Below, piece by piece: positions 905 to 20,071 of a stretch of 20,881 bases of DNA. Position numbers and translations under genes: made by a program. Under the pieces are notes generated by a model. That model saw only the letters and a program-made list of their open reading frames with translations, made no database searches and was not told where the DNA came from. The stretch comes from Sulfurimonas sp. (lineage in GTDB: Bacteria > Campylobacterota > Campylobacteria > Campylobacterales > Sulfurimonadaceae): the NCBI GenBank assembly GCA_026988735.1, contig JALSKR010000053.1, positions 1 to 20,881 on the forward strand, read 5' to 3'. Every line of letters starts with the position of its first letter. Within the stretch, counting starts at the first letter, position 1.

Positions 905-907
905 GAA
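903..907 (+). promoter_or_regulatory. Ribosome binding site overlapping a stop codon
   Basis: AGGAA uses the last bases of the aldolase stop codon (TAG 902-904) and lies six bases from ATG 914. Ribosomes ending on the aldolase gene would land on the flavoprotein start, so the two should be translated in step. Confidence 0.65.
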
Positions 908-913
908 CGCGAT

Positions 914-2308: not shown

Positions 2309-2312
2309 TTCA

Positions 2313-3587: not shown

Positions 3588-3597
3588 AGGATAAAAG

Positions 3598-5736
3598 ATG
3601 ATGAAAAAAGATCCTTCGGTAAATATAGCCATACCAAAGCTGCCTGAAAAATTAATTGGTTTGAAAGATATTTCTCTTAATCTGTGGTGGACATGGAATC
3701 CGCGCGGAAAAAATCTTTTTAAACTTTTAAATGCCTATCTCTGGAAGGAGAGTAATCATAATCCAATTTTAATGCTTAAAAATATGTCAGAAGAAGAACT
3801 GGAAAAAGCATGTTCCAATGAGTATTTTATGCGTGAATATCATTATGTATATGATATGTTCAAAGTATATATGAATGATACCAATGTTTATGCAAAGGAA
3901 CCTTTACCTGTTGCATATTTTTGTGCAGAATACGGTTTGCATCATTCCGTACCGATATATTCGGGAGGTTTGGGGTTTTTAGCCGGAGATATTTTAAAAG
4001 AATCCAGCGATATGGGTCTGCCGATGGTGGGTATAGGATTTATGTATCCAAAAGGATATGTTCGTCAGTTTATCGGTACAGATGGCTGGCAAAACGGGGC
4101 TGAAGAGCCTATAGAAAAAGATGTGGCACCGATTGAAAGGGTTTTAGATAATGATAAAAACCATTTCACGATAGAGGTGCCGTTTATTGATCCTCCTGTA
4201 TTTGCAAGTGTATGGAAGATAAATGTCGGTCGCGTGACGCTCTATCTTTTAGACACGGACATAGAAAAAAATGATCCCTGGGACAGGCAAATTTCTTCCA
4301 GACTCTATACTTCTGATATGAACCAAAGACTGCGTCAACAGATTGTACTCGGTATAGGCGGATACAGAGTGCTTGAAGAGCTTGGCATCGAATATTCCAT
4401 TTTGCATCTTAATGAGGGGCATCCTGCCTTTGCTCTTTTTGAACGGGTACGAAGTTTTATGCAAAATGATAAATTGAGTCTGGATGCAGCAATTCAAAAA
4501 GTGAAAAAAACCTCAATTTTTACGACACATACACCTTTGCAGGCTGCAACGGATGTATATGATTTTGATATGATAGGAGCATCATTTAAAGATTACTGGG
4601 AAGCATTGGGAATGAACAAAGAGCAGTTTATGAGTTTTGGTCTGAATCCTGACAATCCAAATGCCGGTTTTAATATGACGGTTTTTGGATTGAATATGTG
4701 CGATAATGTAAATGCAGTCAGTAAAAAACATTGTGAGGTGGCAACAGAAATATGGAAACATGTGTTGCCAAAAAAAGAAGACGGCAAACCGGCTATGGAT
4801 TATGTGACAAACGGGGTACATCTGCCGACATGGATCAGTGATGAGTTGACTGAAATACTGATACATTCTTTGGGAGATAAATGGAATGTAATACAGGATG
4901 AGAGTGAACTGTGGGATTTTATAAAGGATATAGAGAATAAAAAACTTTGGGATATTTCACAAAGGAGTAAAATAGTCATGGTTAATTTTATAAGAGAATG
5001 TGTCCGTATGAAATATGCAGATGATGGGATTGACCCTGTTGTTGCCATGTCAGAAGGAGTGCTTTTGGACCCTGATATCTTAACGATTGGATTTGCCCGT
5101 CGCATGGCTGAGTACAAACGTCCTGATTTGATTTTACAGGATTTGGACAGACTGGAAAAAATTTTAAACAACAGTGACAAACCTGTGCAGATTATTTTTG
5201 CAGGCAAAGCCCATCCTTCTGATATGGCAGGAAAAAAAATACTGCAGCATATATTTAAGACAGCACAAGACTGCAGGTTTAGAGGGCGTATAGCTTTTGT
5301 GGAAGATTATGGTGAAAATGTAGCAAAGTATCTGCTCCACGGTGTGGATGTATGGTTGAACAATCCATTGATACCTATGGAAGCCTGCGGTACCAGTGGT
5401 ATGAAAGCTTCACTTAACGGTACGCTTCATGTATCAGTTTTGGACGGTTGGTGGCCGGAGGCTTATAATGGTAAAAACGGTTGGACATTCGGAATAGAAC
5501 CGTCTGACAATGCGAAAGATGCTTCAGCCCTATATGATTTACTCGAGAATGAAATAGTACCGCTTTATTATGAGGTAGATAACAATAGAGTGCCAAATAA
5601 CTGGATACTCAAGATGAAAGAGGCGATGCTGAGCATTCCGCCTGCTTTTAGTGCAAGAAGAATGATGAAGGATTATCTTGAAAAATTCTACATTCCTATT
5701 TCAAAAAATTTACAACATACAGGAGAAAAGTTATGA
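3598..5736 (+). CDS. glgP: Alpha-glucan (glycogen/maltodextrin) phosphorylase, short GT35 type
   Basis: Phosphorolyses the non-reducing ends of glycogen to give glucose-1-phosphate, using pyridoxal phosphate. At 712 aa it belongs to the short, archaeal/Thermotoga-like branch of GT35 phosphorylases rather than the E. coli GlgP/MalP branch of about 800 aa. The N-terminal domain with LSLNLWWTWNP-like sequence (about residues 25-36, read here as ISLNLWWTWNP) is typical of that branch. YFCAEYGLHHSVPIYSGGLG follows, with HLNEGHPAFAL and TTHTP in the middle. EACGTSGMKASLNGT contains Lys603, which matches the PLP-binding lysine (Lys680 in rabbit muscle phosphorylase). The long N-terminal allosteric extension of animal enzymes is absent. 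AAAGGA at 3586-3591 overlaps the enolase stop; ATG at 3598 is followed directly by a second ATG at 3601, and either could be used. The gene overlaps the next one by four bases (ATGA). Confidence 0.93.
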   Translation: MMKKDPSVNIAIPKLPEKLIGLKDISLNLWWTWNPRGKNLFKLLNAYLWKESNHNPILMLKNMSEEELEKACSNEYFMREYHYVYDMFKVYMNDTNVYAKEPLPVAYFCAEYGLHHSVPIYSGGLGFLAGDILKESSDMGLPMVGIGFMYPKGYVRQFIGTDGWQNGAEEPIEKDVAPIERVLDNDKNHFTIEVPFIDPPVFASVWKINVGRVTLYLLDTDIEKNDPWDRQISSRLYTSDMNQRLRQQIVLGIGGYRVLEELGIEYSILHLNEGHPAFALFERVRSFMQNDKLSLDAAIQKVKKTSIFTTHTPLQAATDVYDFDMIGASFKDYWEALGMNKEQFMSFGLNPDNPNAGFNMTVFGLNMCDNVNAVSKKHCEVATEIWKHVLPKKEDGKPAMDYVTNGVHLPTWISDELTEILIHSLGDKWNVIQDESELWDFIKDIENKKLWDISQRSKIVMVNFIRECVRMKYADDGIDPVVAMSEGVLLDPDILTIGFARRMAEYKRPDLILQDLDRLEKILNNSDKPVQIIFAGKAHPSDMAGKKILQHIFKTAQDCRFRGRIAFVEDYGENVAKYLLHGVDVWLNNPLIPMEACGTSGMKASLNGTLHVSVLDGWWPEAYNGKNGWTFGIEPSDNAKDASALYDLLENEIVPLYYEVDNNRVPNNWILKMKEAMLSIPPAFSARRMMKDYLEKFYIPISKNLQHTGEKL
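5721..5736 (+). promoter_or_regulatory. Ribosome site plus ATGA stop/start overlap, glgP-gap
   Basis: AGGAG at 5721-5725 sits inside glgP, and the glgP stop TGA (5734-5736) shares bases with the gap start ATG (5733-5735). This is the classic arrangement for translational coupling and ties phosphorylase output to GAPDH. Confidence 0.75.
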
Positions 5737-6740
5737 AAAAACGTATAGCAATTAACGGACTTGGTCGAATTGGTAATCAGGTACTCAGACATTATGTAAA
5801 TAATCTGCCACAAAACTGTGAAATAGTTGCGGCAAATACTTCAAGTGTAGAAGATGCTGCGTATCTTTTGCAGTATGATTCTGTTCACGGACGGGCAGAT
5901 TTTTCTATTGAAACAAAAGAGAATACACTTGTCATTGACGGGCATGAAATTACGATAGTAAGTAACCACAACCCTTTGGAGTTGCCGTGGAAAGATTTAG
6001 GTATAGATATTGTCATAGACTGTACAGGACGTTTTACCGATGGAACTTTGGCGGTACAACATATAGAGGCGGGTGCCAAAAAAGTGCTTATCTCCGCACC
6101 GGGGAAAAATGTCGATTTAACAATAGTAAAAGGAGTGAATCATAAAGAGTATGACACTCAAAAGCATCATATAATATCCAATGCTTCTTGTACAACCAAC
6201 TCTTTAGCACCTGTAATGCAAGTGCTTGAAGAGAATTTCGGTGTACAAAATGCCATGATTACGACAACACATGCCTATACTTCCTCTCAGGTGACAGTTG
6301 ACAAGCGTGCCAAAAAACGCAGACGCGGCCGTGCGGCAGCTGTCAACATCATACCGACAACTACAGGCGCAGCTATTGCAACAGTTGAAGTCATTCCATC
6401 ACTGGCAGGGAAAATGGAAGCCATGGCTTTGCGTGTTCCTGTTCCTGATGGAGCCATAACAGAAGTTGTGGCACTACTCAAGAAAGATGTAACGGCAGAG
6501 AGTGTGAATGAAGCATTTCAAAAAGCTTCAGAAACCCAATTGCAGGGCATCTTGGAGTTTACGACTGATGAAGTTGTCTCCTCAGATATTATAGGTAACA
6601 GACACTTAAGTATTATAGACGGTTTGTCAACATCTGTAGTTGGTAAAAGTATGGTCAAAGTAATGGCGTGGTACGATAATGAGTATGGTTATTCACAGAG
6701 GCTGCTCGAAGTAGCTGATTATATGGCTTCAAAATTATAA
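5733..6740 (+). CDS. gap: Glyceraldehyde-3-phosphate dehydrogenase, probably NADP-preferring or dual-cofactor
   Basis: Interconverts glyceraldehyde-3-phosphate and 1,3-bisphosphoglycerate. It has a Rossmann GLGRIGNQ at 9-16, nucleophile Cys153 in SNASCTTN, activating His180 in TTTHAYT, and a C-terminal WYDNEYGYSQR. Length (335 aa) is normal. Cofactor-site residues are unusual. The aspartate that binds the adenosine ribose in NAD enzymes (Asp32 of Geobacillus stearothermophilus GAPDH) is Thr36 here. The Leu187-Pro188 pair is Lys191-Arg192. The S-loop 191-200 is strongly basic, with eight Lys/Arg in ten residues. Replacing these same three positions converts the G. stearothermophilus enzyme towards NADP, so an NADP or mixed preference is inferred, fitting a biosynthetic (gluconeogenic) direction. 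AGGAG at 5721-5725 serves ATG 5733, which overlaps the glgP stop, suggesting coupled translation. Confidence 0.94.
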   Translation: MKKRIAINGLGRIGNQVLRHYVNNLPQNCEIVAANTSSVEDAAYLLQYDSVHGRADFSIETKENTLVIDGHEITIVSNHNPLELPWKDLGIDIVIDCTGRFTDGTLAVQHIEAGAKKVLISAPGKNVDLTIVKGVNHKEYDTQKHHIISNASCTTNSLAPVMQVLEENFGVQNAMITTTHAYTSSQVTVDKRAKKRRRGRAAAVNIIPTTTGAAIATVEVIPSLAGKMEAMALRVPVPDGAITEVVALLKKDVTAESVNEAFQKASETQLQGILEFTTDEVVSSDIIGNRHLSIIDGLSTSVVGKSMVKVMAWYDNEYGYSQRLLEVADYMASKL

Positions 6741-6755
6741 AAAAAGGATGAAATT

Positions 6756-7187
6756 ATGAAAAGAATTTTAGCAACTGTTTTAGCAGGTAGTTTGTTTTTG
6801 AGTGGATGTGCAACCCGTGGTGTCAATGAAATAGACCCGAGTGCTGTAAATTATGAACTGACATATCAGGTCGGTACCATCGAATCTGTAAAACCGGTCG
6901 TTATAAAAGATAACGGTACAGGTACATTTGTGGGTGCAATTTCCGGTGTGGTTTTAGGTTCCTTGGTCGGTAAAGGCAGAGGCAATGCATTGGCAACGCT
7001 TATAGGCGGTTTAGGCGGTGCCTATGCAGGAAACCAACTTGGAAAAGTAAATGCTCTTGAGTTGAGCGTATTACTTGATGACGGACGACGAATTGTAGTT
7101 ATTGCCAAAGGGAAAGATTTTTACAAAGGTGAAAGAATTCGTATAGTCAAGCGTAATGGCAGAGTATACAGTGTAGAGCCATTTTAA
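6756..7187 (+). CDS. Glycine-zipper outer-membrane lipoprotein (SlyB/17-kDa antigen-like)
   Basis: A 143-aa exported lipoprotein of unknown role. The N terminus MKRILATVLAGSLFLSGC is a lipoprotein signal with lipobox LSGC, so Cys18 is the expected lipidated residue. Residues about 57-97 form a glycine zipper (FVGAISGVVLGSLVG, then LIGGLGGAYAGNQLG) that probably inserts in or lies on a membrane. The C-terminal 45 residues are a small basic beta-rich domain. The overall plan is that of SlyB/Pcp-type envelope lipoproteins. AAGGA at 6744-6748 is seven bases before ATG, and the stop codon abuts the next start. It is the only envelope protein among cytoplasmic carbon-metabolism genes here. A direct role in glycogen metabolism is not evident. 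It may be a passenger or may respond to growth state. Confidence 0.85.
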   Translation: MKRILATVLAGSLFLSGCATRGVNEIDPSAVNYELTYQVGTIESVKPVVIKDNGTGTFVGAISGVVLGSLVGKGRGNALATLIGGLGGAYAGNQLGKVNALELSVLLDDGRRIVVIAKGKDFYKGERIRIVKRNGRVYSVEPF

Positions 7188-8822
7188 ATGCTGAGTTCTT
7201 TGGCAGGAAAGCCGGCTCCTCATGAAGAATTAATTGATGTTGCCTCGCTTATCAGTGATTATTATGAGTGTCAGCCGGATTGTTCATCAGCAGACCAAAA
7301 GGTAAGCTTTGGAACATCGGGTCACAGGGGAAGTGCCTTTAGCAACAGTTTTAATGAAGCACATGTCCTGGCAATTACGCAGGCGGTATGTGAGTATAAA
7401 AAAAAGATGGGTTACGACGGAGCGCTGTACATAGGCAAAGACACCCATGCACTTTCAACACCGGCACAGATAAGTGCTGTTCGCGTATGTGCAGCAAATG
7501 GTATTTTTGTTTGTATTGCCAAAGACGAAATCTATACACCGACTCCTTTAGTCTCTTTTGCAATTTTAGAACATAATAAACACAACAAAGAGAGGGCAGA
7601 CGGTATAATAATAACACCCTCACATAATCCTCCCCAGGACGGCGGCTTTAAATATAATCCGCCAAACGGAGGACCTGCCGATACCGATGTGACTTCTGCC
7701 ATTGAAAAAAGAGCGAATGAGATTTTACAAAACAAGCTTGAAGATGTCGTTCTTGTCTCTTATGAAGAGGCACTCCAGTCCAAATATGTTTCAGCATATG
7801 ATTTTATTACTCCTTATGTGGAAGCACTCTGTGAAATTATAGATTTTAAAGTGATAAAAAATGCCAAATTCAGGTTGGCAGCAGATCCGCTTGGAGGCTC
7901 ATCGATACAGGTGTATGAAAAGATAAAAGAGTATTATCATCTTGATATGGAAATAATTCATCCGTATGCAGATTTTACTTTTTCTTTTATGACTTTGGAT
8001 CATGACGGGAAAATCCGCATGGACTGCTCTTCACCTTATGCAATGGCGTCACTGCTTAAACTCAAAGATAGGTATGATTTGGCTTTTGCAAATGACACAG
8101 ATGCAGACAGACACGGGATTGTAACGCCAAAAGGCGGACTTATTAATCCAAATCATTACCTCAGTGTGGCTATCTGGTACCTCTTTACGCATAGAAAAAA
8201 CTTTACGAAAGATTTAAAAGTCGGAAAAACCTTGGTTTCTAGTTCTATGATAGACAGAGTCTGTGCAAATCTCGGTATAGATGTTTATGAGGTACCGGTA
8301 GGTTTCAAATGGTTTGCGGATGGTTTATCTGAGGGATGGCTCGGTTTTGCTGGAGAAGAGAGTGCCGGAGCGTCATTTTTAAGAAATGATGCCTCTGTCT
8401 GGACGACAGATAAAGACGGCATTATTATGACACTGCTCTCAGCTGAGATTATGGCAGTTACAGGCAAAGATATCGCAGATATCTATGCCGAGTTTGAAGC
8501 AGAGTTTGGAAAATCTTACTATGAGCGTATTGATGCACCTGCCTCGTTGGAGCAAAAAAAGATACTGAAAAACCTTGATGCAGAGTCTCTCAATATTCAA
8601 ATACTCGGCGGTGAAAAAATAGAAAAAATTTTTACAAAAGCTTCAGGAAACGGTGCGTCCATAGGCGGAGTGAAGATTGTTACACAAAACGGCTGGGTGG
8701 CAATGCGTCCGTCGGGAACAGAAGATATTTACAAAATCTATGCTGAGAGTTTTTTATCAAAAGAGCATCTCAAACAAATACAAACAGAAGCACAAAATCT
8801 TATAAAAGAACTGGTTGGGTAG
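7188..8822 (+). CDS. pgm: Phosphoglucomutase (alpha-D-glucose-phosphate specific, E. coli Pgm type)
   Basis: Interconverts glucose-1-phosphate and glucose-6-phosphate, the junction between glycogen and glycolysis. At 544 aa it matches the E. coli Pgm length and its domain order can be followed throughout. FGTSGHRG is near residues 41-48, and catalytic phospho-Ser145 lies in TPSHNPPQDGG. The metal loop DTDADRHG is at 303-310 (Asp303, Asp305, Asp307), sugar-binding GEESAGASF begins at 389, and phosphate-binding RPSGTED is at 507-513. ATG 7188 directly follows the previous stop (TAA 7185-7187). The only ribosome-site candidate is a weak GAG at 7176-7178, so translation may depend on ribosomes arriving from the lipoprotein gene. 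The N terminus MLSSLAGKPA aligns in register with E. coli Pgm, supporting this start. Confidence 0.96.
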   Translation: MLSSLAGKPAPHEELIDVASLISDYYECQPDCSSADQKVSFGTSGHRGSAFSNSFNEAHVLAITQAVCEYKKKMGYDGALYIGKDTHALSTPAQISAVRVCAANGIFVCIAKDEIYTPTPLVSFAILEHNKHNKERADGIIITPSHNPPQDGGFKYNPPNGGPADTDVTSAIEKRANEILQNKLEDVVLVSYEEALQSKYVSAYDFITPYVEALCEIIDFKVIKNAKFRLAADPLGGSSIQVYEKIKEYYHLDMEIIHPYADFTFSFMTLDHDGKIRMDCSSPYAMASLLKLKDRYDLAFANDTDADRHGIVTPKGGLINPNHYLSVAIWYLFTHRKNFTKDLKVGKTLVSSSMIDRVCANLGIDVYEVPVGFKWFADGLSEGWLGFAGEESAGASFLRNDASVWTTDKDGIIMTLLSAEIMAVTGKDIADIYAEFEAEFGKSYYERIDAPASLEQKKILKNLDAESLNIQILGGEKIEKIFTKASGNGASIGGVKIVTQNGWVAMRPSGTEDIYKIYAESFLSKEHLKQIQTEAQNLIKELVG

Positions 8823-8853: not shown

Positions 8854-11355
8854 ATGAAAGCGGTAGTTATGGCGGGCGGATTCGGAACAAGAATCCAGCC
8901 TTTGACAAATTCACGTCCAAAACCAATGTTACCTGTAATGAATAAGCCCATGATGGAGCATACAATGATGATGCTCAAAGATTTGGGAATAACAGAGTTT
9001 ATTATTCTTCTTTATTTCAAACCAGAAATTATTCAAGACTACTTCAAAGACGGCAGTGATTTTGGCATAAATATAAGTTATGTTGTACCTGATGATGATT
9101 ACGGAACGGCGGGGGCTGTCAAACTTGCACAAGAATTTATAGGTGATGAGAATTTCATTATAATCAGCGGTGATTTGGTAACAGACTTTAATTTTCAAGA
9201 ACTTTTTGATTTTCATAAAAAAAAGAAGTCAAAACTTTCCATCGGGCTTACTTCTGTGGAAAATCCTCTGCAGTTTGGTGTTGTTATAGCCAATGAAGAT
9301 AACGTGATTGAGAAATTTCTTGAAAAACCGAGCTGGGGAGAGGTCTTCAGTGACACTATTAATACGGGGATTTATATAATTGAACCTGAAATTTTGGATT
9401 TTATTCCTGCGGGTGAAAATTTTGATTTTGCAAAAGATTTGTTTCCAACGCTCATGGAGCAAAAAATTGAGTTGATGGCTTACAATCTGCAGGGTTATTG
9501 GCGTGATGTCGGCAATCCGCAGAGTTACAGAGAGGTATATGAAGATATACTGGGTGGTGAAGTAAAGTTTAAAATACCCGGTAAGAAGAAAAAATATCCT
9601 GACGGAGTGCTCTATTCACTAGGGAAAAACAAGATTGCAGATTCAGCTGAAATTATCGGTACTGTTGTTTTAGGCAATAATGTAACAATCCAAAAGAATG
9701 TAAAGCTGACCAACACTGTTATAGGGGACAATGTAAGTATTGGGGCATCAAGTAAAATTAAGAATTCTGTTTTTTGGGAAGATATAAAAGTTTCGACACA
9801 CGTGCTCATGGACAGCTGTGTGATTTGTAATGATAATATCATTGAGAAATATGTTAGTGCAACGGCAGGTCTTATACTGGCGGAGGGGTGCGAAGTTGGG
9901 GAACTGACACGCTTTGACAAAGATGTTATTATCTGGCCAAATAAAAAAATAGAACCGGCTTCTGTTGTAACGAACAATCTTGTTTTGGGCAGTAAATATA
10001 AAAACTCTATTTTTGAAGACGGAAGTGTTTACGGTAAAAGCAATATTGAACTCTCCTGTGAAATGGCTACAAAACTCGGAGAATCTTTGGGAGCGCAACT
10101 GCCTGTCCACTCTACTGTGTTAGCCGGACGTGACCAGGATAAAAACTCATTGATGATTAAACGTGCTTTTTTAGGTGGTCTGCTCTCTTGCGGAGTTAAT
10201 ATTCTGGATTTGAAAGAGACGCCCCCTTCTGTTCTTAGATATACGCTTGCCCATGACGATAATTTAGTCGCCGGTGTGCATTTTAAAAGATGTTTGAATG
10301 ATACGGCCAGTTCGGAGATAACTTTTTTTAATGATGAAGCAATGAAAATACATTCCGAATCTGCCAAAACAATAGAAAAAACTTTTTTTGCTGAGAAATT
10401 CCGTCGTGTTGATTACAACAAAATAGGAAGAATTCGGGAAACTGAACATAACATAGAGGCCATTAATTATCAGCGGGCAATCATGAATAATATTGACCAT
10501 AAGATTGTAAGACACGAAAATTTCAAAGTGGTAATGGATTTAATGCACGGTACAACGACAGATATATTTCCAAAAATTATCAATGATATGGCAGTAGAAC
10601 ATGTCATACTGAACTCTTATTATGATGAGAAAAAATTAGCGAATATTGCACTGTTGGAGAAAAAATCACAACTCAATGTATCAAAGATTGTACGCTGTCT
10701 GAATTATAATATGGGGTTTTTAATCTATCCCAATGCCCAACAGTTGGTTCTTGTGGCTGAAAACGGTGTGGTCTTGAGTAAAGTAAAAGCTTTGTATGCC
10801 GTGCTTGAGTTATTGAATTTGGACGGGATGAATGAAAAGAAAAAAGTTTTTTTGCCTGTCTGGGCACCGGATATCCGATACTTTAAAAATCTTGTTATAG
10901 AAAGAGGCAAGTACAGTGACTTTAAAGTGCAAAAGTTAAAAGAGTATGATTTGATTGCCACAGTGGACGGCAATTTTGTTTTTACGGAGTTTAGCTATAC
11001 CCGTGATGCGCTCTATGCGAGTCTGAAAATCATGGAGCTTTTAAGTACCTATAAAATTGATTTGTCAGTTCTTATAAGAAGTCTGAGCGATTTTTACTAT
11101 AAACAATTTAAAGTTGATTGTCCTCAAAAGTTGAAGGGTAAGATGATGCGAAAATTTTTGAAATACGCAAAAGGGAAAAAATCATCATCAGAAGTGGGTG
11201 TGAAAATCTGGGAAGGCAAAAATGATTGGGTATTAATGATACCTGATCAGTACAGTGAACATCTCAACCTCTATATTCAGGCGGAGAATGACGAAAAAGG
11301 AGAGTTGCTTTATGAATCGTATCTGAAAAAAATAGAGCAATTTTCACAAGAGTAG
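8854..11355 (+). CDS. Sugar-1-phosphate nucleotidyltransferase fused to left-handed beta-helix and degenerate phosphohexomutase domain
   Basis: An 833-aa three-part protein. Residues 1-235 are an NTP-transferase domain with GGFGTR at 8-13, Lys23 in RPKPMLP, GTAGAV at 84-89, SGD at 105-107, EKPSWGE at 157-163 and GYWRDVGNP at 214-222. It should make an NDP-sugar from a sugar-1-phosphate. Residues about 255-390 are hexapeptide-like left-handed helix repeats (TVVLGNNVTI, NTVIGDNVSI). Residues about 395-833 have the outline of a phosphoglucomutase/phosphomannomutase (VLAGRDQDKNSLMIKRAFLGGLLSCGV, split here as 422-448), but every catalytic loop is altered, so this half is probably non-catalytic. 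The architecture resembles the mannose-1-phosphate guanylyltransferase-like fusions of cyanobacteria. Substrate could be mannose-1-P/GTP or glucose-1-P/ATP or UTP; the neighbours argue for a glucose donor. GGGAG at 8845-8849 gives a good start. Confidence 0.85.
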   Translation: MKAVVMAGGFGTRIQPLTNSRPKPMLPVMNKPMMEHTMMMLKDLGITEFIILLYFKPEIIQDYFKDGSDFGINISYVVPDDDYGTAGAVKLAQEFIGDENFIIISGDLVTDFNFQELFDFHKKKKSKLSIGLTSVENPLQFGVVIANEDNVIEKFLEKPSWGEVFSDTINTGIYIIEPEILDFIPAGENFDFAKDLFPTLMEQKIELMAYNLQGYWRDVGNPQSYREVYEDILGGEVKFKIPGKKKKYPDGVLYSLGKNKIADSAEIIGTVVLGNNVTIQKNVKLTNTVIGDNVSIGASSKIKNSVFWEDIKVSTHVLMDSCVICNDNIIEKYVSATAGLILAEGCEVGELTRFDKDVIIWPNKKIEPASVVTNNLVLGSKYKNSIFEDGSVYGKSNIELSCEMATKLGESLGAQLPVHSTVLAGRDQDKNSLMIKRAFLGGLLSCGVNILDLKETPPSVLRYTLAHDDNLVAGVHFKRCLNDTASSEITFFNDEAMKIHSESAKTIEKTFFAEKFRRVDYNKIGRIRETEHNIEAINYQRAIMNNIDHKIVRHENFKVVMDLMHGTTTDIFPKIINDMAVEHVILNSYYDEKKLANIALLEKKSQLNVSKIVRCLNYNMGFLIYPNAQQLVLVAENGVVLSKVKALYAVLELLNLDGMNEKKKVFLPVWAPDIRYFKNLVIERGKYSDFKVQKLKEYDLIATVDGNFVFTEFSYTRDALYASLKIMELLSTYKIDLSVLIRSLSDFYYKQFKVDCPQKLKGKMMRKFLKYAKGKKSSSEVGVKIWEGKNDWVLMIPDQYSEHLNLYIQAENDEKGELLYESYLKKIEQFSQE

Positions 11356-11362
11356 GACAATT

Positions 11363-13384
11363 ATGAATGTAAGTTTTATGTGGCATATGCACCAGCCTGA
11401 CTATCGCAACGAAGAGGGAATTATGCAGATGCCGTGGGTCTTTTTGCATGCCATAAAAGACTATTATGATATGCCGTGGATGCTCAGTCGATATAAAAAC
11501 ATACAGGCAACATTTAATATCACTTCTCCTTTGATAGAGCAGTTGAAACTCTATTATAAAAATTCCAAAAAATCAGACAAGTTTTTGTCCCTTTGGTCAC
11601 AAAATCCATCTTCTTTGAAAACACAGGAGAGACAATGGCTTGTAAAAATTTGCAAAAGTTCCCAGTTTGACACGATGGTAAAAAGCTTGTCCCATTACGA
11701 AGAACTGTATAAAAAAGAGAATTTTGATGATGATGAGTTGTTGGACCTTGAAGTTCTGTTTGTTCTCTCCTGGTGTGGAAATTATCTTCAAAAAAACAAC
11801 TTACATGTAAAGCGTTTACTGCAAAAGCAAAGAAATTATACCGATGAAGATAAAGTACAGCTTTTAGAGGAGTTGTCAAAATTTATAAGGGGCATATGGA
11901 AGTTTTATAAAGAACTTTATGATAAAAAACGTATAACAATCAGTACGACACCGTTTTATCATCCTATATTGCCGTTACTGCTTGATATGCAAAATGCCAA
12001 AAGAGCAAATCCTCATACGCAGATACCGCAAAATTATGAAAAACTTGAAGAAGATTCCCGTTTACATGTACAAAAGGCAAAAGATCTGTTTTTTGAGACC
12101 TTTGGCTATACAACAGATGTTTTTTGGCCTGCAGAGGGAGCTGTTGATGAGAAGAGTGTAGCGCTTTTAAAGTCTCTTGGTATTAATTTTATCGCAACAG
12201 ACGAAGCAATACTCTATAAATCTTTAAATACAAACAGCAAAAAGCTTATTTATACTCCCTATAATTATAAGCATATGCTTATAGGATTTCGTGATCACAA
12301 ACTGAGCGATTTGATAGGTTTTGAGTATAGATACAAAGAGGCGAGAGAGGCTGCAGAAAATTTTATGTCAGAACTGGAATCTATACAAAATATGAATGGC
12401 AACGCAACTGTTTTTGTGATTTTAGACGGTGAAAATGCCTGGGAGTTTTATAAAAATAACGGTTTTGATTTTTTTGAAGCACTGTACGCTTCTTTGGAAA
12501 AAGCATCCTGGTGTAAAACATTGACAACAGATGAGGTAAAAAGTCTGCCTTCTCGTGAGCTTATTAATCTGGAGCCGGGAAGTTGGATCAACGGCTCTTT
12601 TGATACCTGGGTCGGAGAGTATGAGAAGAGAAGAGCTTGGGAACTTCTTTTTTTGGCAAAAAAAGATTATGAACATCATAAAGCATCATTAAGTGATGCA
12701 AAAAAAACAAAAATAGCAGACCACTTTTTACAGGCAGAGTGCTCTGACTGGTTTTGGTGGTACGGAAGTGATCATTATACAAATTTTGCTTTGGAATTTG
12801 ATGCAATTTTTCGCAGGCACCTTATAAATATTTACAATCTGATAGGCATTGCCGTACCCAATGATTTGTACCTGCCAATCGGAAAAAATCAAAGCAGCAC
12901 ACAATTTTGGATAAAACCGCAGTCAAAAATAACACCGAACATAGACGGTAAAAGAGATTCGTTTTTTGAGTGGATGGGCTGCGGTGTTATAGATGAGAGC
13001 AGAGTTTTTTCAACAATGCAGTCAAATACGGGACCCATTAAAAAAATATACTATGGACAGGATGATTTTAAACTCTATTTTGCTTTTGAGGGTGCTGTTG
13101 AAAATTTGTGTAAAAAAGGCAGAATGAATATTATCATAGACCCGATGGGATTGAGTATAAAAATATCTTTTCATCAAAAGGAGATTGTACTGCAGGGCAT
13201 CAAAATAAAATCTGCATGTAAAGAGTGGCTGGAGGTAAGTCTGGATAAAGAGCAGATAAAGCAAAAGAAAATTTGGTTACGATTTGAAATTGAAGAAAAC
13301 AGTACTTCTTTGCAAACCCTGCCGAGTTTTGGTGAACTTGAAGTAGATCTGCAAGATGATTATGCCAAAAACTGGTTTATATGA
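11363..13384 (+). CDS. GH57 glycoside hydrolase, amylopullulanase/alpha-amylase-like
   Basis: A cytoplasmic (no signal peptide) alpha-glucan-active enzyme of 673 aa. The five GH57 regions are present. HMHQP is at 8-12, TTPFYHPILPLL starts near 195, WPAEGAVD has the probable nucleophile Glu258, LDGENAWE has the probable acid Asp355, and WINGSFDTWVG is at 408-417. The W-P-A-E and D-G-E-N forms are those of the amylopullulanase-like branch. After the catalytic barrel the C-terminal 150 residues hold a beta-rich domain (PNIDGKRDSFFEWMGCG, then KKIYYGQDDFKLYF) as found at the end of such GH57 proteins. It could hydrolyse alpha-1,4 and/or alpha-1,6 bonds; sequence alone does not decide. AGGA at 11354-11357 overlaps the previous stop. 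The gene ends in an ATGA overlap with a second, different GH57 gene. Confidence 0.87.
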   Translation: MNVSFMWHMHQPDYRNEEGIMQMPWVFLHAIKDYYDMPWMLSRYKNIQATFNITSPLIEQLKLYYKNSKKSDKFLSLWSQNPSSLKTQERQWLVKICKSSQFDTMVKSLSHYEELYKKENFDDDELLDLEVLFVLSWCGNYLQKNNLHVKRLLQKQRNYTDEDKVQLLEELSKFIRGIWKFYKELYDKKRITISTTPFYHPILPLLLDMQNAKRANPHTQIPQNYEKLEEDSRLHVQKAKDLFFETFGYTTDVFWPAEGAVDEKSVALLKSLGINFIATDEAILYKSLNTNSKKLIYTPYNYKHMLIGFRDHKLSDLIGFEYRYKEAREAAENFMSELESIQNMNGNATVFVILDGENAWEFYKNNGFDFFEALYASLEKASWCKTLTTDEVKSLPSRELINLEPGSWINGSFDTWVGEYEKRRAWELLFLAKKDYEHHKASLSDAKKTKIADHFLQAECSDWFWWYGSDHYTNFALEFDAIFRRHLINIYNLIGIAVPNDLYLPIGKNQSSTQFWIKPQSKITPNIDGKRDSFFEWMGCGVIDESRVFSTMQSNTGPIKKIYYGQDDFKLYFAFEGAVENLCKKGRMNIIIDPMGLSIKISFHQKEIVLQGIKIKSACKEWLEVSLDKEQIKQKKIWLRFEIEENSTSLQTLPSFGELEVDLQDDYAKNWFI

Positions 13385-13395: not shown

Positions 13396-15393
13396 AAAAA
13401 AGTATCTTTATTGTTTGGAATTCATATGCATCAGCCTGTAGATAATTTTGATGAGGCAGTAGACAAAGCTGTAAAGCTCTGTTATGAACCATTTTTTCAG
13501 ACAATGCTGCAATATCCAAAATTTAAGTTTTCCCTGCACTGCAGCGGGTGGCTGCTTGACAAGATAAAATCAGAATATCCGAAACTTTTTGCAAATATGC
13601 AGACTTTGACAAAAGCCGGCTCTATTGAGTGGCTCAGTGGAGGATATTATGAACCTGTACTCTCTAGCATACCCGCCAAAGACCGACGGGCACAGATAAA
13701 AAAGCTCAGCAACTATATAAAAAAACATTTTAAGGTAAAGCCTCAGGGCTTATGGCTGACGGAGAGAGTTTGGGAAGCCTCTTTGGTAAGCGATTTAAGA
13801 AGATGCGGTATACAATATGCCATGGTGGATGATTACCATTTTTTAAGCAACAGATATGATGCGAATAAAATGAACGGTTATTATATGACGGAAGATAACG
13901 GGGATGATTTGGCTCTTTTTCCTATAGCAAAAAAGTTGAGATACTCTTTGCCTTTTTCCAGTGACGGTGATGCCATAGATAGCATTTTGGAATATCAAAA
14001 AGAGGAAAATTCTGCAGCCGTTATATTTGATGATGCCGAAAAGTTTGGACTCTGGCCCGATACAAACAAATGGGTTTATGAGCAAAAATGGCTGCAGAAT
14101 TTTGTAGAAGCTGTTTTGGAAAATGAAAAAATACAAACGCAGCATTACAGCAAATATCTGCAAAAAAACAACTCTTTGGGACTGGCGTATCTGGATAACT
14201 GTTCTTACTCTGAGATGGGAGAGTGGAGTCTAGAGACAGAGGCTGCTTTGGAATTTAAGAAGATTCAAGAAGAGGTTGCACCCTACATTATCAAAGGCGG
14301 TATCTGGAAAAACTTTTTTATAAAATATCATGAGAGTAACTATTTGCATAAGCGAATGCTCTATTTGAGTTTGAAACAAAAAGATTTTGACAGATATTCA
14401 CTCGATGCACTTTACAGACTGCAGACAAATGATGGCTTTTGGCATGGTATTTTTGGCGGTTTTTATCTGCCGAGTCTGCGGGACAATGCCTATAGATACC
14501 TTCTTGAAATAGAACAGCAGCGAGCCAAAGAAGAGATAAGTTTTGAGTTTTTTGATATTGACAAAGACGGATATAGTGAGCTCAAAGTCTTAACACCGAC
14601 ACTCAGTTTGCTCTTTTCTACAAAAAATGGTGCACAGATGGTCGAATTTGGCTCACTTGACACTCTCTTTAACTGGCAAAATACCATTATGAGAAGAAAA
14701 GAGAGCTATCATAATAAAATTCTACATGTAGAGCAAAAAAACAAACATGAAAACAAAGAAGTTATTGCTAGTATCCATGACAGAAACAGTAAAGCAGATG
14801 AATCTTTAAAGAGTGAACTTGTATTTGACTGGCATGCAAAGAACTCTTTTATAGACCACTTCAGCTGTGAGGAATTTACGTTGGAGAGTTTTCAACATTT
14901 GGCTTACAAGGAGGTGGGTGATTTTGCAAACAAGCCGTTTGTCCTGAAAAATAAAAAGTTTGTACGCCAAGGCGGTATCTATCTGGGTGAAAAAAAGTAT
15001 GATGCAAAACTGCAAAAAAGGTATTCTTTTGATACAAATGCATTTCATTTAAAAAACAGATTTACAACAGCATATACAGAAAAACTCTACTTTGCCCAGG
15101 AGTTTAATTTTCATTTTGCCCATCCATATGCAGTAACTTTTAATGACAAAACCGTGCAAGACGGTTTGCGTCTGCATGATGTCGACAGATTGGCAATTCA
15201 AGATGATTTTACAAAAAAAACATTGCTTATAAGGGTAAATCAAAAATGTAATATATTTGCCTTTGTTTTGCATACAGTTTCCCAGTCTGAGAACGGTTTT
15301 GAGAAAATAGCACAGCAGATAAGCTTTGTTTTTATAACAGATTTTGTATCAGATTTACAACTGCAATTTTCTTTGGAAGTGCATAATGTCTGA
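13393..15393 (+). CDS. GH57 4-alpha-glucanotransferase (Thermococcus litoralis TLGT-like)
   Basis: Transfers alpha-1,4-glucan segments between chains. It aligns along its length with Thermococcus litoralis 4-alpha-glucanotransferase: GIHMHQP at the N terminus, SGGYYEPVLSSIP, and GLWLTERVWE with nucleophile Glu124. IFDDAEKFGLWP has acid Asp214, and GGIWKNFFIKYHESN and DGFWHGIFGG follow. The C-terminal DUF1925/DUF1926-like beta domains end in FDW...DHF and SQSENGF motifs. Length is 666 aa from ATG 13393. That start is chosen because GAGGGA (13383-13388) precedes it and MKKVSLLFGIH aligns with the TLGT N terminus. ATG 13381, in the ATGA overlap with the previous stop, has no ribosome site and would add four residues. 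No secretion signal is present, so it acts on internal glycogen or maltodextrin. Confidence 0.92.
   Translation: MKKVSLLFGIHMHQPVDNFDEAVDKAVKLCYEPFFQTMLQYPKFKFSLHCSGWLLDKIKSEYPKLFANMQTLTKAGSIEWLSGGYYEPVLSSIPAKDRRAQIKKLSNYIKKHFKVKPQGLWLTERVWEASLVSDLRRCGIQYAMVDDYHFLSNRYDANKMNGYYMTEDNGDDLALFPIAKKLRYSLPFSSDGDAIDSILEYQKEENSAAVIFDDAEKFGLWPDTNKWVYEQKWLQNFVEAVLENEKIQTQHYSKYLQKNNSLGLAYLDNCSYSEMGEWSLETEAALEFKKIQEEVAPYIIKGGIWKNFFIKYHESNYLHKRMLYLSLKQKDFDRYSLDALYRLQTNDGFWHGIFGGFYLPSLRDNAYRYLLEIEQQRAKEEISFEFFDIDKDGYSELKVLTPTLSLLFSTKNGAQMVEFGSLDTLFNWQNTIMRRKESYHNKILHVEQKNKHENKEVIASIHDRNSKADESLKSELVFDWHAKNSFIDHFSCEEFTLESFQHLAYKEVGDFANKPFVLKNKKFVRQGGIYLGEKKYDAKLQKRYSFDTNAFHLKNRFTTAYTEKLYFAQEFNFHFAHPYAVTFNDKTVQDGLRLHDVDRLAIQDDFTKKTLLIRVNQKCNIFAFVLHTVSQSENGFEKIAQQISFVFITDFVSDLQLQFSLEVHNV
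15375..15388 (+). promoter_or_regulatory. galT: Ribosome site fixing the galT start
   Basis: GGAAG at 15375-15379, six bases before ATG 15386, chooses this start over the in-frame ATG at 15344, which lies deeper in the preceding gene and would add fourteen residues unlike any GalT N terminus. Confidence 0.7.
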
Positions 15394-16402: not shown

Positions 16403-17761
16403 ATGAATGTTCTTTTTGCGGCAAGTGAAATTTTCCCTTATGCAAAAACAGGCGGGCTTGCAGATGTCTCCTGTGCTTTGCCTCTTGCTTTAAAGGAGTA
16501 TGTGAAAATCAGCAGAGTAATGCCGCTGTACGGATGTATGAATGAGAGTGAGTATAAATCTTATGATAATTTTACGGTAAGTTTGGACGGCGGGCATTAC
16601 CCGGTTACAATTTTTACAAAAGAAGAAAAAGATGTTGTTACCTATTTTGTAAAAGCGCTACACTTGAGTCAGACACAAAATCTGTACGGTGATGAAAATG
16701 GAGACTATAAAAACAATGCATTGCGTTTTGGGATATTTTGCATGGCGGTTCTTGAACTGGCTTTGCGCCTCAACTGTAGACTCATCCATCTCAATGACTG
16801 GCATACGGCACTGGTTGCACTCTTTGTAAAAGAATACCAACTGAATATTAAAACGGTATTTACTATTCACAATCTTGCGTATCAGGGTGTTTTTGATCAG
16901 TCAGTTTTGCAAACTCTGGATATTTCTGAACGCTATTTTACTATGGATGCTTTGGAATTTTATTCAAAAGTCAATTTGCTAAAGGCAGGAATTGCCTACA
17001 GTGATATGATTACTACGGTAAGCCCGACTTATGCGCGGGAGATTTTAACAGAAGGTTTTGGCTGTGGTTTAAACGGTTTTTTGCAAAAACATGAGCGAAA
17101 ACTTGTCGGTATTTTAAACGGGATTGATTACACTGTTTTTAAACCTTTGCACGATAAAAAAATAAAAAGCAAAGCAAAAGCTGATTTTTGTCAAAAGTTT
17201 GGCTTTGAAAATCCAAAACTACCGCTTTTTATTATGGTGAGTCGATTAACTGAACAAAAAGGTATTGACCTGTTGCTGGAGTCGTTTGAAGAACTGCAAA
17301 AGAAAAAAATCAATCTTTTTATTTTGGGTGAAGGTGAGACAAAATATACGCAAGCATTACATGTATTTGTAAAAAAACAGAGCAATTTTTCTTTTGTTCA
17401 GGGGTTTGATGAGGATTTGTCACATCAGGCATACCTGGCATCTGATTTTTTGCTGATGCCGTCAAGGTTTGAGCCCTGCGGGTTAAATCAGTTTATTGCA
17501 ATGAACTGTGGCAGTGTAGCAATTGTCCATGAGGTCGGGGGCTTAAAAGATTCTGTGCATGAACAAAAAGCTTTGTGTGGACAGGGTGTTACCTATAAAG
17601 AGCAGAACAAAAAAGAGTTTTTGTATGCTGTAGAGAGAGCTTTAAATCTTTACAGTGAGAAGAAAAAAATGCAAAAGATTATAGATTTTAATCTTGCATG
17701 TGATTTTTCTTTTGACAAGAGTGCAAAAAAATACTTCAAAATTTATAAGAGTCTGCTATGA
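16403..17761 (+). CDS. glgA: Glycogen synthase, diverged copy 1 (GT5)
   Basis: Adds glucosyl units from an NDP-glucose donor to the growing alpha-1,4-glucan. At 452 aa it is about 25 residues shorter than E. coli GlgA. Core residues are kept: Lys15 in KTGGLADV, LNDWHTA near 134-140, ILNGID, Arg281 and Lys286 in SRLTEQKG, and Glu357 in SRFEPCGLNQ. The stretch after EPCGL differs from the consensus. Where classical GlgA has YGT-P-VR-TGGL, this protein reads NCGSVAIVHEVGGL, so donor specificity or regulation may differ from copy 2. GAGAGG at 16387-16392 lies ten bases from ATG. The gene ends in an ATGA overlap with the ROK kinase gene. Confidence 0.93.
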   Translation: MNVLFAASEIFPYAKTGGLADVSCALPLALKEYVKISRVMPLYGCMNESEYKSYDNFTVSLDGGHYPVTIFTKEEKDVVTYFVKALHLSQTQNLYGDENGDYKNNALRFGIFCMAVLELALRLNCRLIHLNDWHTALVALFVKEYQLNIKTVFTIHNLAYQGVFDQSVLQTLDISERYFTMDALEFYSKVNLLKAGIAYSDMITTVSPTYAREILTEGFGCGLNGFLQKHERKLVGILNGIDYTVFKPLHDKKIKSKAKADFCQKFGFENPKLPLFIMVSRLTEQKGIDLLLESFEELQKKKINLFILGEGETKYTQALHVFVKKQSNFSFVQGFDEDLSHQAYLASDFLLMPSRFEPCGLNQFIAMNCGSVAIVHEVGGLKDSVHEQKALCGQGVTYKEQNKKEFLYAVERALNLYSEKKKMQKIIDFNLACDFSFDKSAKKYFKIYKSLL

Positions 17762-18600
17762 AACTGGGGATAGATATAGGCGGAACATATCTTCGTTATG
17801 AACTCAGAGAAAATGGCAAAACAATACAAAAATCATCTCTCAAAAGCACACAAACAGGACTTTGCCGTTTTTTAGAGATGATTTTAAAAAAAGAAAAAAA
17901 GATTGCAACTGTTTTTATATCCTATGCCGGACAGATAAAAGAGGGTGTTATTCTTGCCTCTCCCAATATAAAAATAGACAAACATGACATAAAAGCCTAT
18001 ATAGAAGCCAAGTACAATGTAAAACTTTTTATACAAAACGATGTCAACTGTGCAGTTTTGGCTGAAGCAAGAGCCTGCAATACCAAAAATATCTGTGCCG
18101 TTTATGTGGGAACAGGCCTTGGACTTGGCGTTGTCACTTCCTCTGGACTTTTGCAGGGAAATGACAGTATTGCAGCAGAACTGGGACACATTCCCTATAA
18201 AAACGCCCCCTTGACATGTAACTGCGGCAAAGAGAACTGTATAGAACTTTTTTGCTCAGGAAGCGGACTTTTACGATGGAAGGAGCACTGTAAACTCAAA
18301 TCGGCATTGAGTTTAGAACAATTGCACCAAAGCAAGAATGACAAAGCACAAAAAATTTATGATGAATTTGTTGAAGCTCTTTTATATGCAGTGGGTACGA
18401 CTATCACGCTTTTTAATCCGAAAGTTTTGGTGCTTGGAGGCGGATTGATTATGAATAACAGGTACTTACACGAGATTGTTGAACAAAGAATCCATGCATA
18501 TGCTTTGCCGCTTGCTTTGAAAAATATAAAAATTACTGTTTCACAACTTGAAGATGCTGCCCTTGAGGGCGCATTTTTACTAAAGGATTATCATGGCTGA
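17758..18600 (+). CDS. glk: ROK-family sugar kinase, probable glucokinase
   Basis: Phosphorylates free hexose, most likely glucose, with ATP. The 280-aa protein has the ATP-binding DIGGT at 6-10, ASPN at 67-70, catalytic Asp95 in QNDVNCA, and GTGLGLGV at 118-125. Glu141 and His144 lie in ELGHIP. The ROK zinc motif CNCGKENCIE uses Cys154, Cys156 and Cys161 with His144, and GGG near residue 226-228 completes the nucleotide site. There is no N-terminal DNA-binding helix, so it is a kinase and not a ROK repressor. Position between two glycogen synthase genes fits recapture of glucose released by debranching or GH57 action. It shares ATGA with the gene before it and overlaps the gene after it by eight bases. 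Glucose as substrate is inferred from family and context. Confidence 0.88.
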   Translation: MKLGIDIGGTYLRYELRENGKTIQKSSLKSTQTGLCRFLEMILKKEKKIATVFISYAGQIKEGVILASPNIKIDKHDIKAYIEAKYNVKLFIQNDVNCAVLAEARACNTKNICAVYVGTGLGLGVVTSSGLLQGNDSIAAELGHIPYKNAPLTCNCGKENCIELFCSGSGLLRWKEHCKLKSALSLEQLHQSKNDKAQKIYDEFVEALLYAVGTTITLFNPKVLVLGGGLIMNNRYLHEIVEQRIHAYALPLALKNIKITVSQLEDAALEGAFLLKDYHG

Positions 18601-20071
18601 AAAACTAAATATACTTTTTGCGGCGGCTGAGGTTGTCCCTTTTGCCAAAACAGGCGGACTGGCTGATGTGGCGGGTGCTCTGCCAAAGGCTTTGCAAAAT
18701 CTGGGACATAACATTAAAGTTGTCATGCCGAGGTATTACAGCATTGATACTGCAAAACTAGAAAAACTTCCTGCATCACTGGGCGTTCCTATGGGTATTA
18801 TGGGAGAATTTTGGGCCGGAGTCTACAAAACAACTCTGCCTCAAAGCAAGGTGGAGATCTATTTTATAGAGTATGAACACTATTTTGGAAGAAGCGGACT
18901 GTACGGGGATGAGAACGGCGGTTATCATGATAATGACAACCGTTTTGTGTTTTTTTCAAAAGCAGCCTTGCAGCTTTGTAAAATGCTGCATTTTACGCCT
19001 GATATTATTCATGCAAATGACTGGCATACGGCTGCTATGCCAGTTCTTGCAAAAACACGTTTTGTGCATGATTTTGCTTATGCGACTTCGGTGTTAACGA
19101 TTCACAATCTCCAGCATCAGGGACATTTTTACAAAGGTGTGATGGATGTTATGGAGGTCGGCTGGGAATATTTTAATCCGCACTCTTTGGAGAGTTTTGA
19201 CGGTGTCAATATCTTAAAAGGCGGTATTGCCGAAGCGGATGCCGTTACCACAGTATCAAAAAAATATGCTCTTGAGATTCAAACACCGGAATTCGGTTTT
19301 GGATTGGACGGACATATAAGAGCACATAATCATAAACTTTTTGGCATCTTAAACGGAGTGGATTATACAGAATGGAACCCTGCTGTTGATAAATTTTTAG
19401 CACAAAACTATGATGTCGGAAACATGCAGGGAAAGCTTACATGTAAAGAGGATCTGCAAAAACATTTTCATCTTGCAGTACGGGATGACGTGCCGCTTAT
19501 AGGCTTTGTAGGACGTTTTGTAAAACAAAAAGGCATAGAACTGATAGCCGGCGTGATAAACAAACTCTTGGACCATGATATACAGGTTGTCATGCTTGGA
19601 ACCGGTGAGTATTGGGCTGAAGATTTTTTTTCAGAAGTAGCGTATTTTCGGGAGAATTTTGTCCTGCATGTAGGCTATTCAAATGAGCTGGCACACAAAA
19701 TAGAAGCAGGAAGTGATATGTTTTTAATGCCCTCTCTCTTTGAACCCTGCGGACTCAACCAGATATACAGCCTGCGCTACGGTACCCTGCCGATAGTCAG
19801 AGCAACAGGAGGACTTGATGATACGATAGTGAATTTTGATGAGCAGCATAAAACCGGCAACGGCTTTAAGTTTTATGATGCTACATTAGAAGCACTTTAC
19901 AACACGGTTCTGTGGGCTGTGAATGTTTACAATAACAAAAAAGAGGCATTTCAAAGAATGCAAAAATTTGCGATGCAGGAGCATTTTAGCTGGGAAGACT
20001 CCGCCAAAGAGTATGAAAAAGTCTATTTGTTTGCATTGCAACACAAACGAGGAAAAAATTATGAAATATGA
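18593..20071 (+). CDS. glgA: Glycogen synthase, canonical copy 2 (GT5)
   Basis: Full-length bacterial glycogen synthase (492 aa), transferring glucose from ADP-glucose (usual bacterial donor) to glycogen. Lys19 lies in KTGGLADVAGALP, HANDWHTA is near 142-149, and TIHNLQHQG and ILNGVDY follow. Arg308 and Lys313 are in GRFVKQKGIEL, Glu384 is in FEPCGLNQIYSLRYGTLP, and the consensus IVRATGGLDDT comes after. Every donor-site motif of E. coli GlgA that I can check is retained, unlike in copy 1. AAAGGA at 18582-18587 lies inside the end of the ROK gene, five bases from ATG. It overlaps the branching enzyme gene by eleven bases, the usual glgA-glgB partnership. Confidence 0.96.
   Translation: MAEKLNILFAAAEVVPFAKTGGLADVAGALPKALQNLGHNIKVVMPRYYSIDTAKLEKLPASLGVPMGIMGEFWAGVYKTTLPQSKVEIYFIEYEHYFGRSGLYGDENGGYHDNDNRFVFFSKAALQLCKMLHFTPDIIHANDWHTAAMPVLAKTRFVHDFAYATSVLTIHNLQHQGHFYKGVMDVMEVGWEYFNPHSLESFDGVNILKGGIAEADAVTTVSKKYALEIQTPEFGFGLDGHIRAHNHKLFGILNGVDYTEWNPAVDKFLAQNYDVGNMQGKLTCKEDLQKHFHLAVRDDVPLIGFVGRFVKQKGIELIAGVINKLLDHDIQVVMLGTGEYWAEDFFSEVAYFRENFVLHVGYSNELAHKIEAGSDMFLMPSLFEPCGLNQIYSLRYGTLPIVRATGGLDDTIVNFDEQHKTGNGFKFYDATLEALYNTVLWAVNVYNNKKEAFQRMQKFAMQEHFSWEDSAKEYEKVYLFALQHKRGKNYEI

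What the first reader, a model, noticed from the sequence alone, without database searches (positions are those of the whole stretch)
8854..11355. Nucleotidyltransferase fused to a phosphohexomutase domain that has lost all four catalytic loops
The C-terminal half keeps the mutase framework (AGRDQDKNSLMIKRAFLGGLL at 424-444 in shape, and the downstream domain order). The TxSHNP phosphoserine loop is replaced around 472-482 (GVHFKRCLND). The DGDADR metal loop is replaced around 621-634 (IYPNAQQLVLVAENG). The GEESG sugar loop is replaced around 704-717 (VDGNFVFTEFSYTRD), and the RPSGTE phosphate loop around 796-806 (IPDQYSEHLNL). The frame is intact over 833 codons, so the domain is kept while catalysis is lost, pointing to a structural or regulatory role such as a sensor of glucose-1-P or glucose-1,6-bisphosphate controlling the nucleotidyltransferase. 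Similar fusions are known in cyanobacteria; the role of the dead half is, as far as I know, unresolved.
Basis: partly seen in the sequence, partly recalled or inferred. Interest (0 to 1): 0.72.

Follow-up and report, generated by a model that had tools for sequence, protein, structure and literature searches.

The report
Glycogen enzyme with dead mutase half
A Sulfurimonas-like bacterium carries, in its glycogen gene cluster, a sugar-activating enzyme fused to a mutase that has lost its catalytic parts; the pattern across related genomes suggests that this fusion stands in for the usual glycogen enzyme GlgC, with the dead half kept for control or assembly.

Summary

The gene heads a GH57-GH57-GalT-GlgA-ROK-GlgA operon. 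In 200 Campylobacterota genomes the fusion and GlgA occur in the same 27; GlgC and GlgE matches are in 0, GalU in 196. I infer that the fusion is the missing NDP-glucose (probably ADP-glucose) pyrophosphorylase, in place of GlgC, with the dead half as regulatory or assembly domain. Against a unique role: the operon's GalT-like gene tracks GlgA almost as well (26 of the 27, 1 of 173). Activity, substrate and effector are untested. The public label 'mannose-1-phosphate guanylyltransferase/phosphomannomutase' is doubtful in its first part and contradicted by the residues in its second.

The parts
8854..11355 (+). whole fusion gene, 833 aa
   Evidence: full-length relatives
8854..9558 (+). nucleotidyltransferase domain, residues 1-235, signature residues kept
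9583..9981 (+). left-handed beta-helix, residues 244-376
   Evidence: PF25084 and PF00132; strands in the model
10006..11352 (+). pseudo-mutase half, residues 385-833, four-domain phosphohexomutase fold
10273..10305 (+). former phosphoserine loop, residues 474-484 GVHFKRCLNDT; Ser column is Cys480
10723..10746 (+). former metal loop, residues 624-631 IYPNAQQL (canonical DGDADR)
10957..10980 (+). former sugar loop, residues 702-709 ATVDGNFV
11233..11259 (+). former phosphate loop, residues 794-802 LMIPDQYSE (canonical RPSGTE)
7188..8822 (+). separate intact phosphoglucomutase Pgm directly upstream
   Evidence: TIGR01132 824.2 bits, cut-off 778.05; all four catalytic motifs present with the wider patterns
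3598..5736 (+). alpha-glucan phosphorylase
   Evidence: TIGR02094 768.9 bits, cut-off 191.7
11363..13384 (+). GH57 protein a
   Evidence: PF03065
13381..15393 (+). GH57 protein b, alpha-amylase/4-alpha-glucanotransferase type
   Evidence: PF03065, PF09094, PF09095
15386..16399 (+). GalT-like nucleotidyltransferase (start taken at 15386; the mechanical ORF starts at 15344)
   Evidence: PF01087, PF02744; co-occurrence
16403..17761 (+). glycogen synthase GlgA, copy 1, KTGGL at residue 15
   Evidence: TIGR02095 458.2 bits, cut-off 328.45
17758..18600 (+). ROK-type kinase (named by eye from the sequence)
   Evidence: recurrent place in the operon
18593..20071 (+). glycogen synthase GlgA, copy 2, KTGGL at residue 19
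   Evidence: TIGR02095 552.1 bits

Best explanation
The protein is the NDP-glucose (most likely ADP-glucose) pyrophosphorylase that feeds glycogen synthase GlgA in Campylobacterota, where no GlgC was found. The N-terminal nucleotidyltransferase and beta-helix do the chemistry on glucose-1-phosphate. The C-terminal half is a pseudo-phosphohexomutase: it keeps the four-domain fold but not the catalytic loops, and works as regulatory or assembly domain, through a rebuilt cleft and new conserved surfaces. Shown: fold (predicted), loss of the catalytic loops, conservation, operon, co-occurrence with GlgA, no GlgC or GlgE match. Inferred: substrate, nucleotide, replacement of GlgC, and that the dead half controls or assembles the enzyme.
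For: Nucleotidyltransferase signature residues invariant over 70 sequences. Fusion and GlgA in the same 27 of 200 genomes, 14 genera of 47, 8 families by the labels; Fisher p 5e-34, which ignores kinship. Within the window's genus in that sample, 4 genomes are listed with both and 5 with neither. GlgC 0 of 200 at E 1e-70 and 0 of 60 over its cut-off; control positive in 7 of 14 named genomes. GlgE 0 of 200, control positive in 1 of 14. GalU 196 of 200, so it does not track the glycogen genes, and G242 has fusion and GlgA but no GalU match at E 1e-60. Operon order FUS-GH57a-GH57b-GalT-GlgA-ROK-GlgA recurs, with losses, in distant families. Separate Pgm TIGR01132 in 20 of the 27 fusion genomes and 3 of the other 173. 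Both window GlgA copies have KTGGL (its link to ADP-glucose is recalled). Conserved replacement loops in Campylobacterota, close versions in Aquificota and Deferribacterota proteins, low pN/pS in every domain.
Against: The fusion is not the only gene that tracks GlgA: the operon's GalT-like nucleotidyltransferase is in 26 of the 27 (missing in G058) and in 1 of the other 173 (G106), so co-occurrence alone does not say which of the two, if either, makes the sugar nucleotide. The nucleotidyltransferase scores nearer to mannose-1-phosphate guanylyltransferase (NF052502 237.1 bits, cut-off 440) than to GlgC (TIGR02091 126.4 bits, cut-off 424.9). In the nearer, partly overlapping sample of 60 genomes: 23 both, 30 neither, 5 fusion only (G008, G014, G027, G034, G052), 2 GlgA only (G007, G037); all seven are drafts of 150 or more contigs. 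Some copies lie without glycogen neighbours (L053, L054, L070). Seven of 27 fusion genomes have no TIGR01132 Pgm. Actinomycetota relatives showed no glycogen neighbours. pTM 0.59 leaves the placement of the halves open. No activity, effector or partner is known.
Confidence: 0.55

Rival explanations
1. The C half is only a structural or docking module (oligomerisation, or binding GlgA or another operon protein) and binds no small molecule.
For: New conserved stretches away from the old loops (434-442, 511-519, 761-769); the Ser loop is no more conserved than the average of the half; recurrent operon.
Against: The former metal, sugar and phosphate loops are above average in conservation (27, 15 and 18% of windows of the half are as conserved), which suggests that the old cleft still has a task.
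Confidence: 0.3
2. The enzyme makes GDP-mannose or another NDP-sugar for other glycans and sits near glycogen genes for another reason.
For: Best NCBIfam score is to a mannose-1-phosphate guanylyltransferase model, though below its cut-off; N part folds like GMPPB; public names; some copies without glycogen neighbours.
Against: Same 27 of 200 genomes as GlgA; glycogen operon in distant families; no GlgC match that could supply GlgA.
Confidence: 0.15
3. GlgA uses UDP-glucose from GalU, and the fusion has a secondary role in the pathway.
For: GalU is in 196 of 200 genomes; a GlgA that takes UDP-glucose as well as ADP-glucose is documented for Chlamydia trachomatis (PMC7935935, passages seen).
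Against: The fusion is present in every genome with GlgA in the 200-genome sample; G242 has no GalU match yet has both.
Confidence: 0.12
4. The operon's GalT-like protein supplies or recycles the ADP-glucose (members of that superfamily with ADP-glucose phosphorylase activity are recalled), and the fusion does something else.
For: PF01087 and PF02744; in 26 of the 27 GlgA genomes and 1 of 173 others; in 13 of 15 operon stretches looked at.
Against: G058 has two GlgA and the fusion but no GalT-like match at E 1e-20; G106 has the GalT-like gene without GlgA or fusion. The recalled phosphorylase reaction runs towards breakdown.
Confidence: 0.1
5. One reading: the dead half senses glucose-1-phosphate or glucose-1,6-bisphosphate, its ancestral ligands.
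For: The fold is kept; several basic residues are invariant or nearly so (K436, R437, R462, R517, K761, R766).
Against: Sugar and phosphate loops are replaced, and several canonical basic positions of the mutase site are changed (read by eye).
Confidence: 0.12
6. A truly bifunctional pyrophosphorylase/mutase, as databases name it.
For: Public names; Ser at the phosphoserine column in 25 of 60 relatives; 7 of 27 fusion genomes lack a TIGR01132 Pgm.
Against: Metal, sugar and phosphate motifs absent from their loops in 360 of 360 proteins scanned; in this window an intact Pgm lies next door.
Confidence: 0.04

Closest known systems
GlgC, ADP-glucose pyrophosphorylase (TIGR02091)
   Same: nucleotidyltransferase plus beta-helix, and (inferred for the fusion) a place in glycogen synthesis
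   Different: 126.4 bits against a cut-off of 424.9; carries an extra pseudo-mutase of about 450 residues; no GlgC match in the 200 Campylobacterota genomes searched
GDP-mannose pyrophosphorylases (GMPPB 7d72, Leishmania 7whs, Arabidopsis VTC1 7x8j) and tlr0611 (8x7s, deposited as UTP--glucose-1-phosphate uridylyltransferase)
   Same: closest solved sequences and folds of residues 1-378
   Different: these chains of 355-401 residues have no mutase half; substrate of the fusion is unknown
Archaeal phosphoglucomutase/phosphomannomutase (9du5, 1wqa, 2f7l)
   Same: four-domain fold of residues 383-832, 20-23% identity
   Different: all four catalytic loops replaced
GMPPA/GMPPB (7d72)
   Same: logic of a dead relative that controls a live pyrophosphorylase (the control role of GMPPA is recalled, not checked)
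   Different: there the dead partner is a pyrophosphorylase on a separate chain; here it is a mutase on the same chain
Actinomycetota fusions named mannose-1-phosphate guanyltransferase (L071-L074, P0121-P0240)
   Same: same architecture over 99% of the length at 25-29% identity; the four motifs absent in P0121-P0240
   Different: own loop sequences, with Asp, Glu and Arg in the former metal loop in ten of ten rows; no glycogen neighbours seen (L072 has no annotation)

Membership tests
alpha-D-phosphohexomutase superfamily (as an active enzyme) | four-domain fold | tested here: met
alpha-D-phosphohexomutase superfamily (as an active enzyme) | phosphoserine loop with Ser-His-Asn | tested here: not met
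   GVHFKRCLND, Cys480 at the Ser column
alpha-D-phosphohexomutase superfamily (as an active enzyme) | metal loop DxDxDR | tested here: not met
   YPNAQQ; pattern in 2 of 360 proteins, both off the loop
alpha-D-phosphohexomutase superfamily (as an active enzyme) | sugar loop, [GC]Ex[SN][GA] | tested here: not met
   TVDGN; 0 of 360. Relatives such as L049 read GEGN, which is close
alpha-D-phosphohexomutase superfamily (as an active enzyme) | phosphate loop RxS[GN]T[ET] | tested here: not met
   IPDQYS; 0 of 360
NDP-sugar pyrophosphorylase (PF00483) | GxGTR and PKP signatures and the two metal-binding Asp | tested here: met
   PF00483 194.4 bits; G8 G9 G11 R13, P22 K23 P24, D107, D218 invariant over 70 sequences (roles recalled)
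GlgC | TIGR02091 score over its curated cut-off | tested here: not met
   126.4 against 424.9 bits
GlgC | makes ADP-glucose | not testable with these tools
   only context: same 27 genomes as GlgA
mannose-1-phosphate guanylyltransferase (NF052502) | score over the curated cut-off | tested here: not met
   237.1 against 440 bits

The most novel reading that the evidence does not exclude
Campylobacterota, and perhaps Aquificota and Deferribacterota, make ADP-glucose not with GlgC but with a distantly related pyrophosphorylase whose allosteric unit is a pseudo-phosphohexomutase with a rebuilt cleft: an independent solution to the committed, controlled step of bacterial glycogen synthesis.
Probability: 0.42. 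Interest if true: 0.8.

Novelty: new variant of a known kind. Interest (0 to 1): 0.6.

Why it matters
[quoted passage not shown] This fusion is a concrete candidate for another one, found with GlgA in 8 families of Campylobacterota, and directly testable. It is also a case of a mutase reused, by sequence, as a non-catalytic domain in proteins from four phyla. And it means that 'phosphomannomutase' in the public names of this family should not be used to reconstruct metabolism.

Tried and rejected
Intact catalytic motifs elsewhere: searched over 360 proteins, none at the right loop. Recent decay or a sequencing artefact: rejected, as the frame is intact in dozens of records and all domains show low pN/pS; synonymous distances are saturated in 18 to 24 of 36 pairs per domain, so the ratios are rough. 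GlgE route: no match in 200 genomes. An in-frame TGA flagged inside GlgA of G180, G021 and G004: read for G180 only, where it is the normal stop. Literature: ten searches of the open PMC library (listings with starts of abstracts only, apart from passages of PMC7935935 and PMC11046441) gave no title or abstract on this fusion in glycogen synthesis; subscription journals are not held, so this is weak evidence of novelty. The second structure job and the viral fold library were not used.

Full report
Where it lies. The window belongs to a Sulfurimonas-like genome: the best named match of the protein is from Sulfurimonas sp. SWIR-19, 91%. Around the gene stand an alpha-glucan phosphorylase, an intact Pgm, two GH57 proteins, a GalT-like protein and two glycogen synthases, identified by profile, and a ROK-type kinase named by eye.

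The four loops. Alignments to solved mutases and to the genome's own mutases agree: SHN to CLN, DGDADR to YPNAQQ, GEQSG to TVDGN, RxSGTE to IPDQYS. Over 360 proteins from three searches (one listed from each, the query among them) none has a sugar or phosphate motif; a metal-type pattern occurs in 2 and SHN in 6, each time off the proper loop. The wider patterns find all four motifs in five of five intact mutases of this genome. The 360 are the best hits of three queries, two from Campylobacterota and one from Nonomuraea, not a sample of the whole family. Replacement sequences are conserved: in the 60 rows of the Campylobacterota-type group P797 is in 60, F710 in 60, M795 in 59, P626 in 59, G706 in 57, Q629 in 56; the Ser column is free (Ser 25, Cys 14, Lys 7 and others). 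Sulfurihydrogenibium azorense (P0316, Aquificota), another record named Aquificae (P0270), Limisalsivibrio acetivorans (P0357, Deferribacterota) and a record named Deferribacteres (P0348) have close versions, MIPDQY or MVPDQY at the phosphate loop. The ten Actinomycetota rows have their own versions. By position entropy the former metal, sugar and phosphate loops are more conserved than most windows of the half, the Ser loop is average, and the strongest windows are 434-442 MIKRAFLGG, 761-769 KGKMMRKFL and 792-800 WVLMIPDQY. Median pN/pS over 36 pairs is 0.08 for the nucleotidyltransferase, 0.15 for the beta-helix and 0.13 to 0.18 for the four mutase domains, with saturated synonymous distances in 18 to 24 of the 36 pairs. 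So the half looks like an old, constrained pseudo-mutase.

The pathway. In 200 Campylobacterota genomes the fusion (E 1e-150) is in 27, GlgA in 27, and the lists are identical. GlgC matches are in 0, GlgE in 0, GalU in 196, Pgm TIGR01132 in 23, of which 20 carry the fusion. The operon's GalT-like gene is in 27, of which 26 carry the fusion; G058 lacks it and G106 has it alone. In 22 of the 27 the fusion and GlgA lie on the same contig within about 15 kb; in the other 5 (G041, G050, G058, G164, G177), all drafts, they are on different contigs, but in each the fusion still stands next to GH57a (counted by eye from the tables). In the nearer sample of 60 genomes, which overlaps the first, 23 have both, 30 neither, 5 only the fusion, 2 only GlgA, and all seven exceptions are assemblies of 150 or more contigs. 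I read these exceptions as assembly gaps, which is an inference. GlgC scores over its cut-off in 0 of those 60; the four weaker matches, in three genomes, are the fusion itself.

How it most likely works. GlgA needs an activated glucose. GlgC was not found and GalU does not track GlgA. Of the four nucleotidyl-transferring genes tested (fusion, GlgC, GalU, GalT-like), two track it: the fusion in 27 of 27 and the GalT-like gene in 26 of 27. The fusion is the one of pyrophosphorylase type. It is therefore best read as the NDP-glucose pyrophosphorylase of the pathway, probably for ADP-glucose, since both GlgA copies of the window have the KTGGL motif of bacterial GlgA (meaning recalled). GlgC-type enzymes are controlled by metabolites (recalled). 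A conserved dead sugar-phosphate enzyme fused to this step is a plausible controller, but its ligand need not be the ancestral one, because the sugar and phosphate loops are rebuilt. A pure assembly or docking role is nearly as likely.

Limits. No activity, ligand or partner is shown. The nucleotidyltransferase is by sequence closer to GDP-mannose enzymes than to GlgC. Genomes are not independent, so the p-value overstates the case, although the fusion genomes fall in 8 families and the window's genus holds genomes with both genes and with neither. Some copies lie without glycogen neighbours (L053, L054, L070). Other phyla were not tested for the link with glycogen.

Noticed in passing
L053, L054, L070 and G057 (C14 and C138): Some genomes carry a second copy of the fusion; L053, L054 and the plasmid copy of Sulfuricurvum kujiense (L070) have none of the window's other genes nearby.
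   Followed up: partly
window 15386-16399: The GalT-like gene of the operon is in 26 of the 27 genomes with GlgA and in 1 of 173 others, and in 13 of 15 operon stretches; its role in glycogen metabolism is unknown.
   Followed up: partly
window 16403-20071: Two different GlgA genes flank a ROK-type kinase gene; several families have only one GlgA.
   Followed up: no
window 2-8822: Genes that look like aldolase, dihydrolipoamide-dehydrogenase-type, enolase and GAPDH proteins, a small lipoprotein-like gene and Pgm form one run upstream of the fusion; most of such a run was seen in a few close relatives (names by eye).
   Followed up: no
L051, L058, L090: Three assemblies hold split or interrupted copies of the fusion; these may be assembly errors.
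   Followed up: no
Actinomycetota rows of alignment A2, columns of residues 625-630: Ten of ten Actinomycetota rows have Asp, Glu and Arg in the former metal loop, so their dead half may differ in ligand.
   Followed up: no
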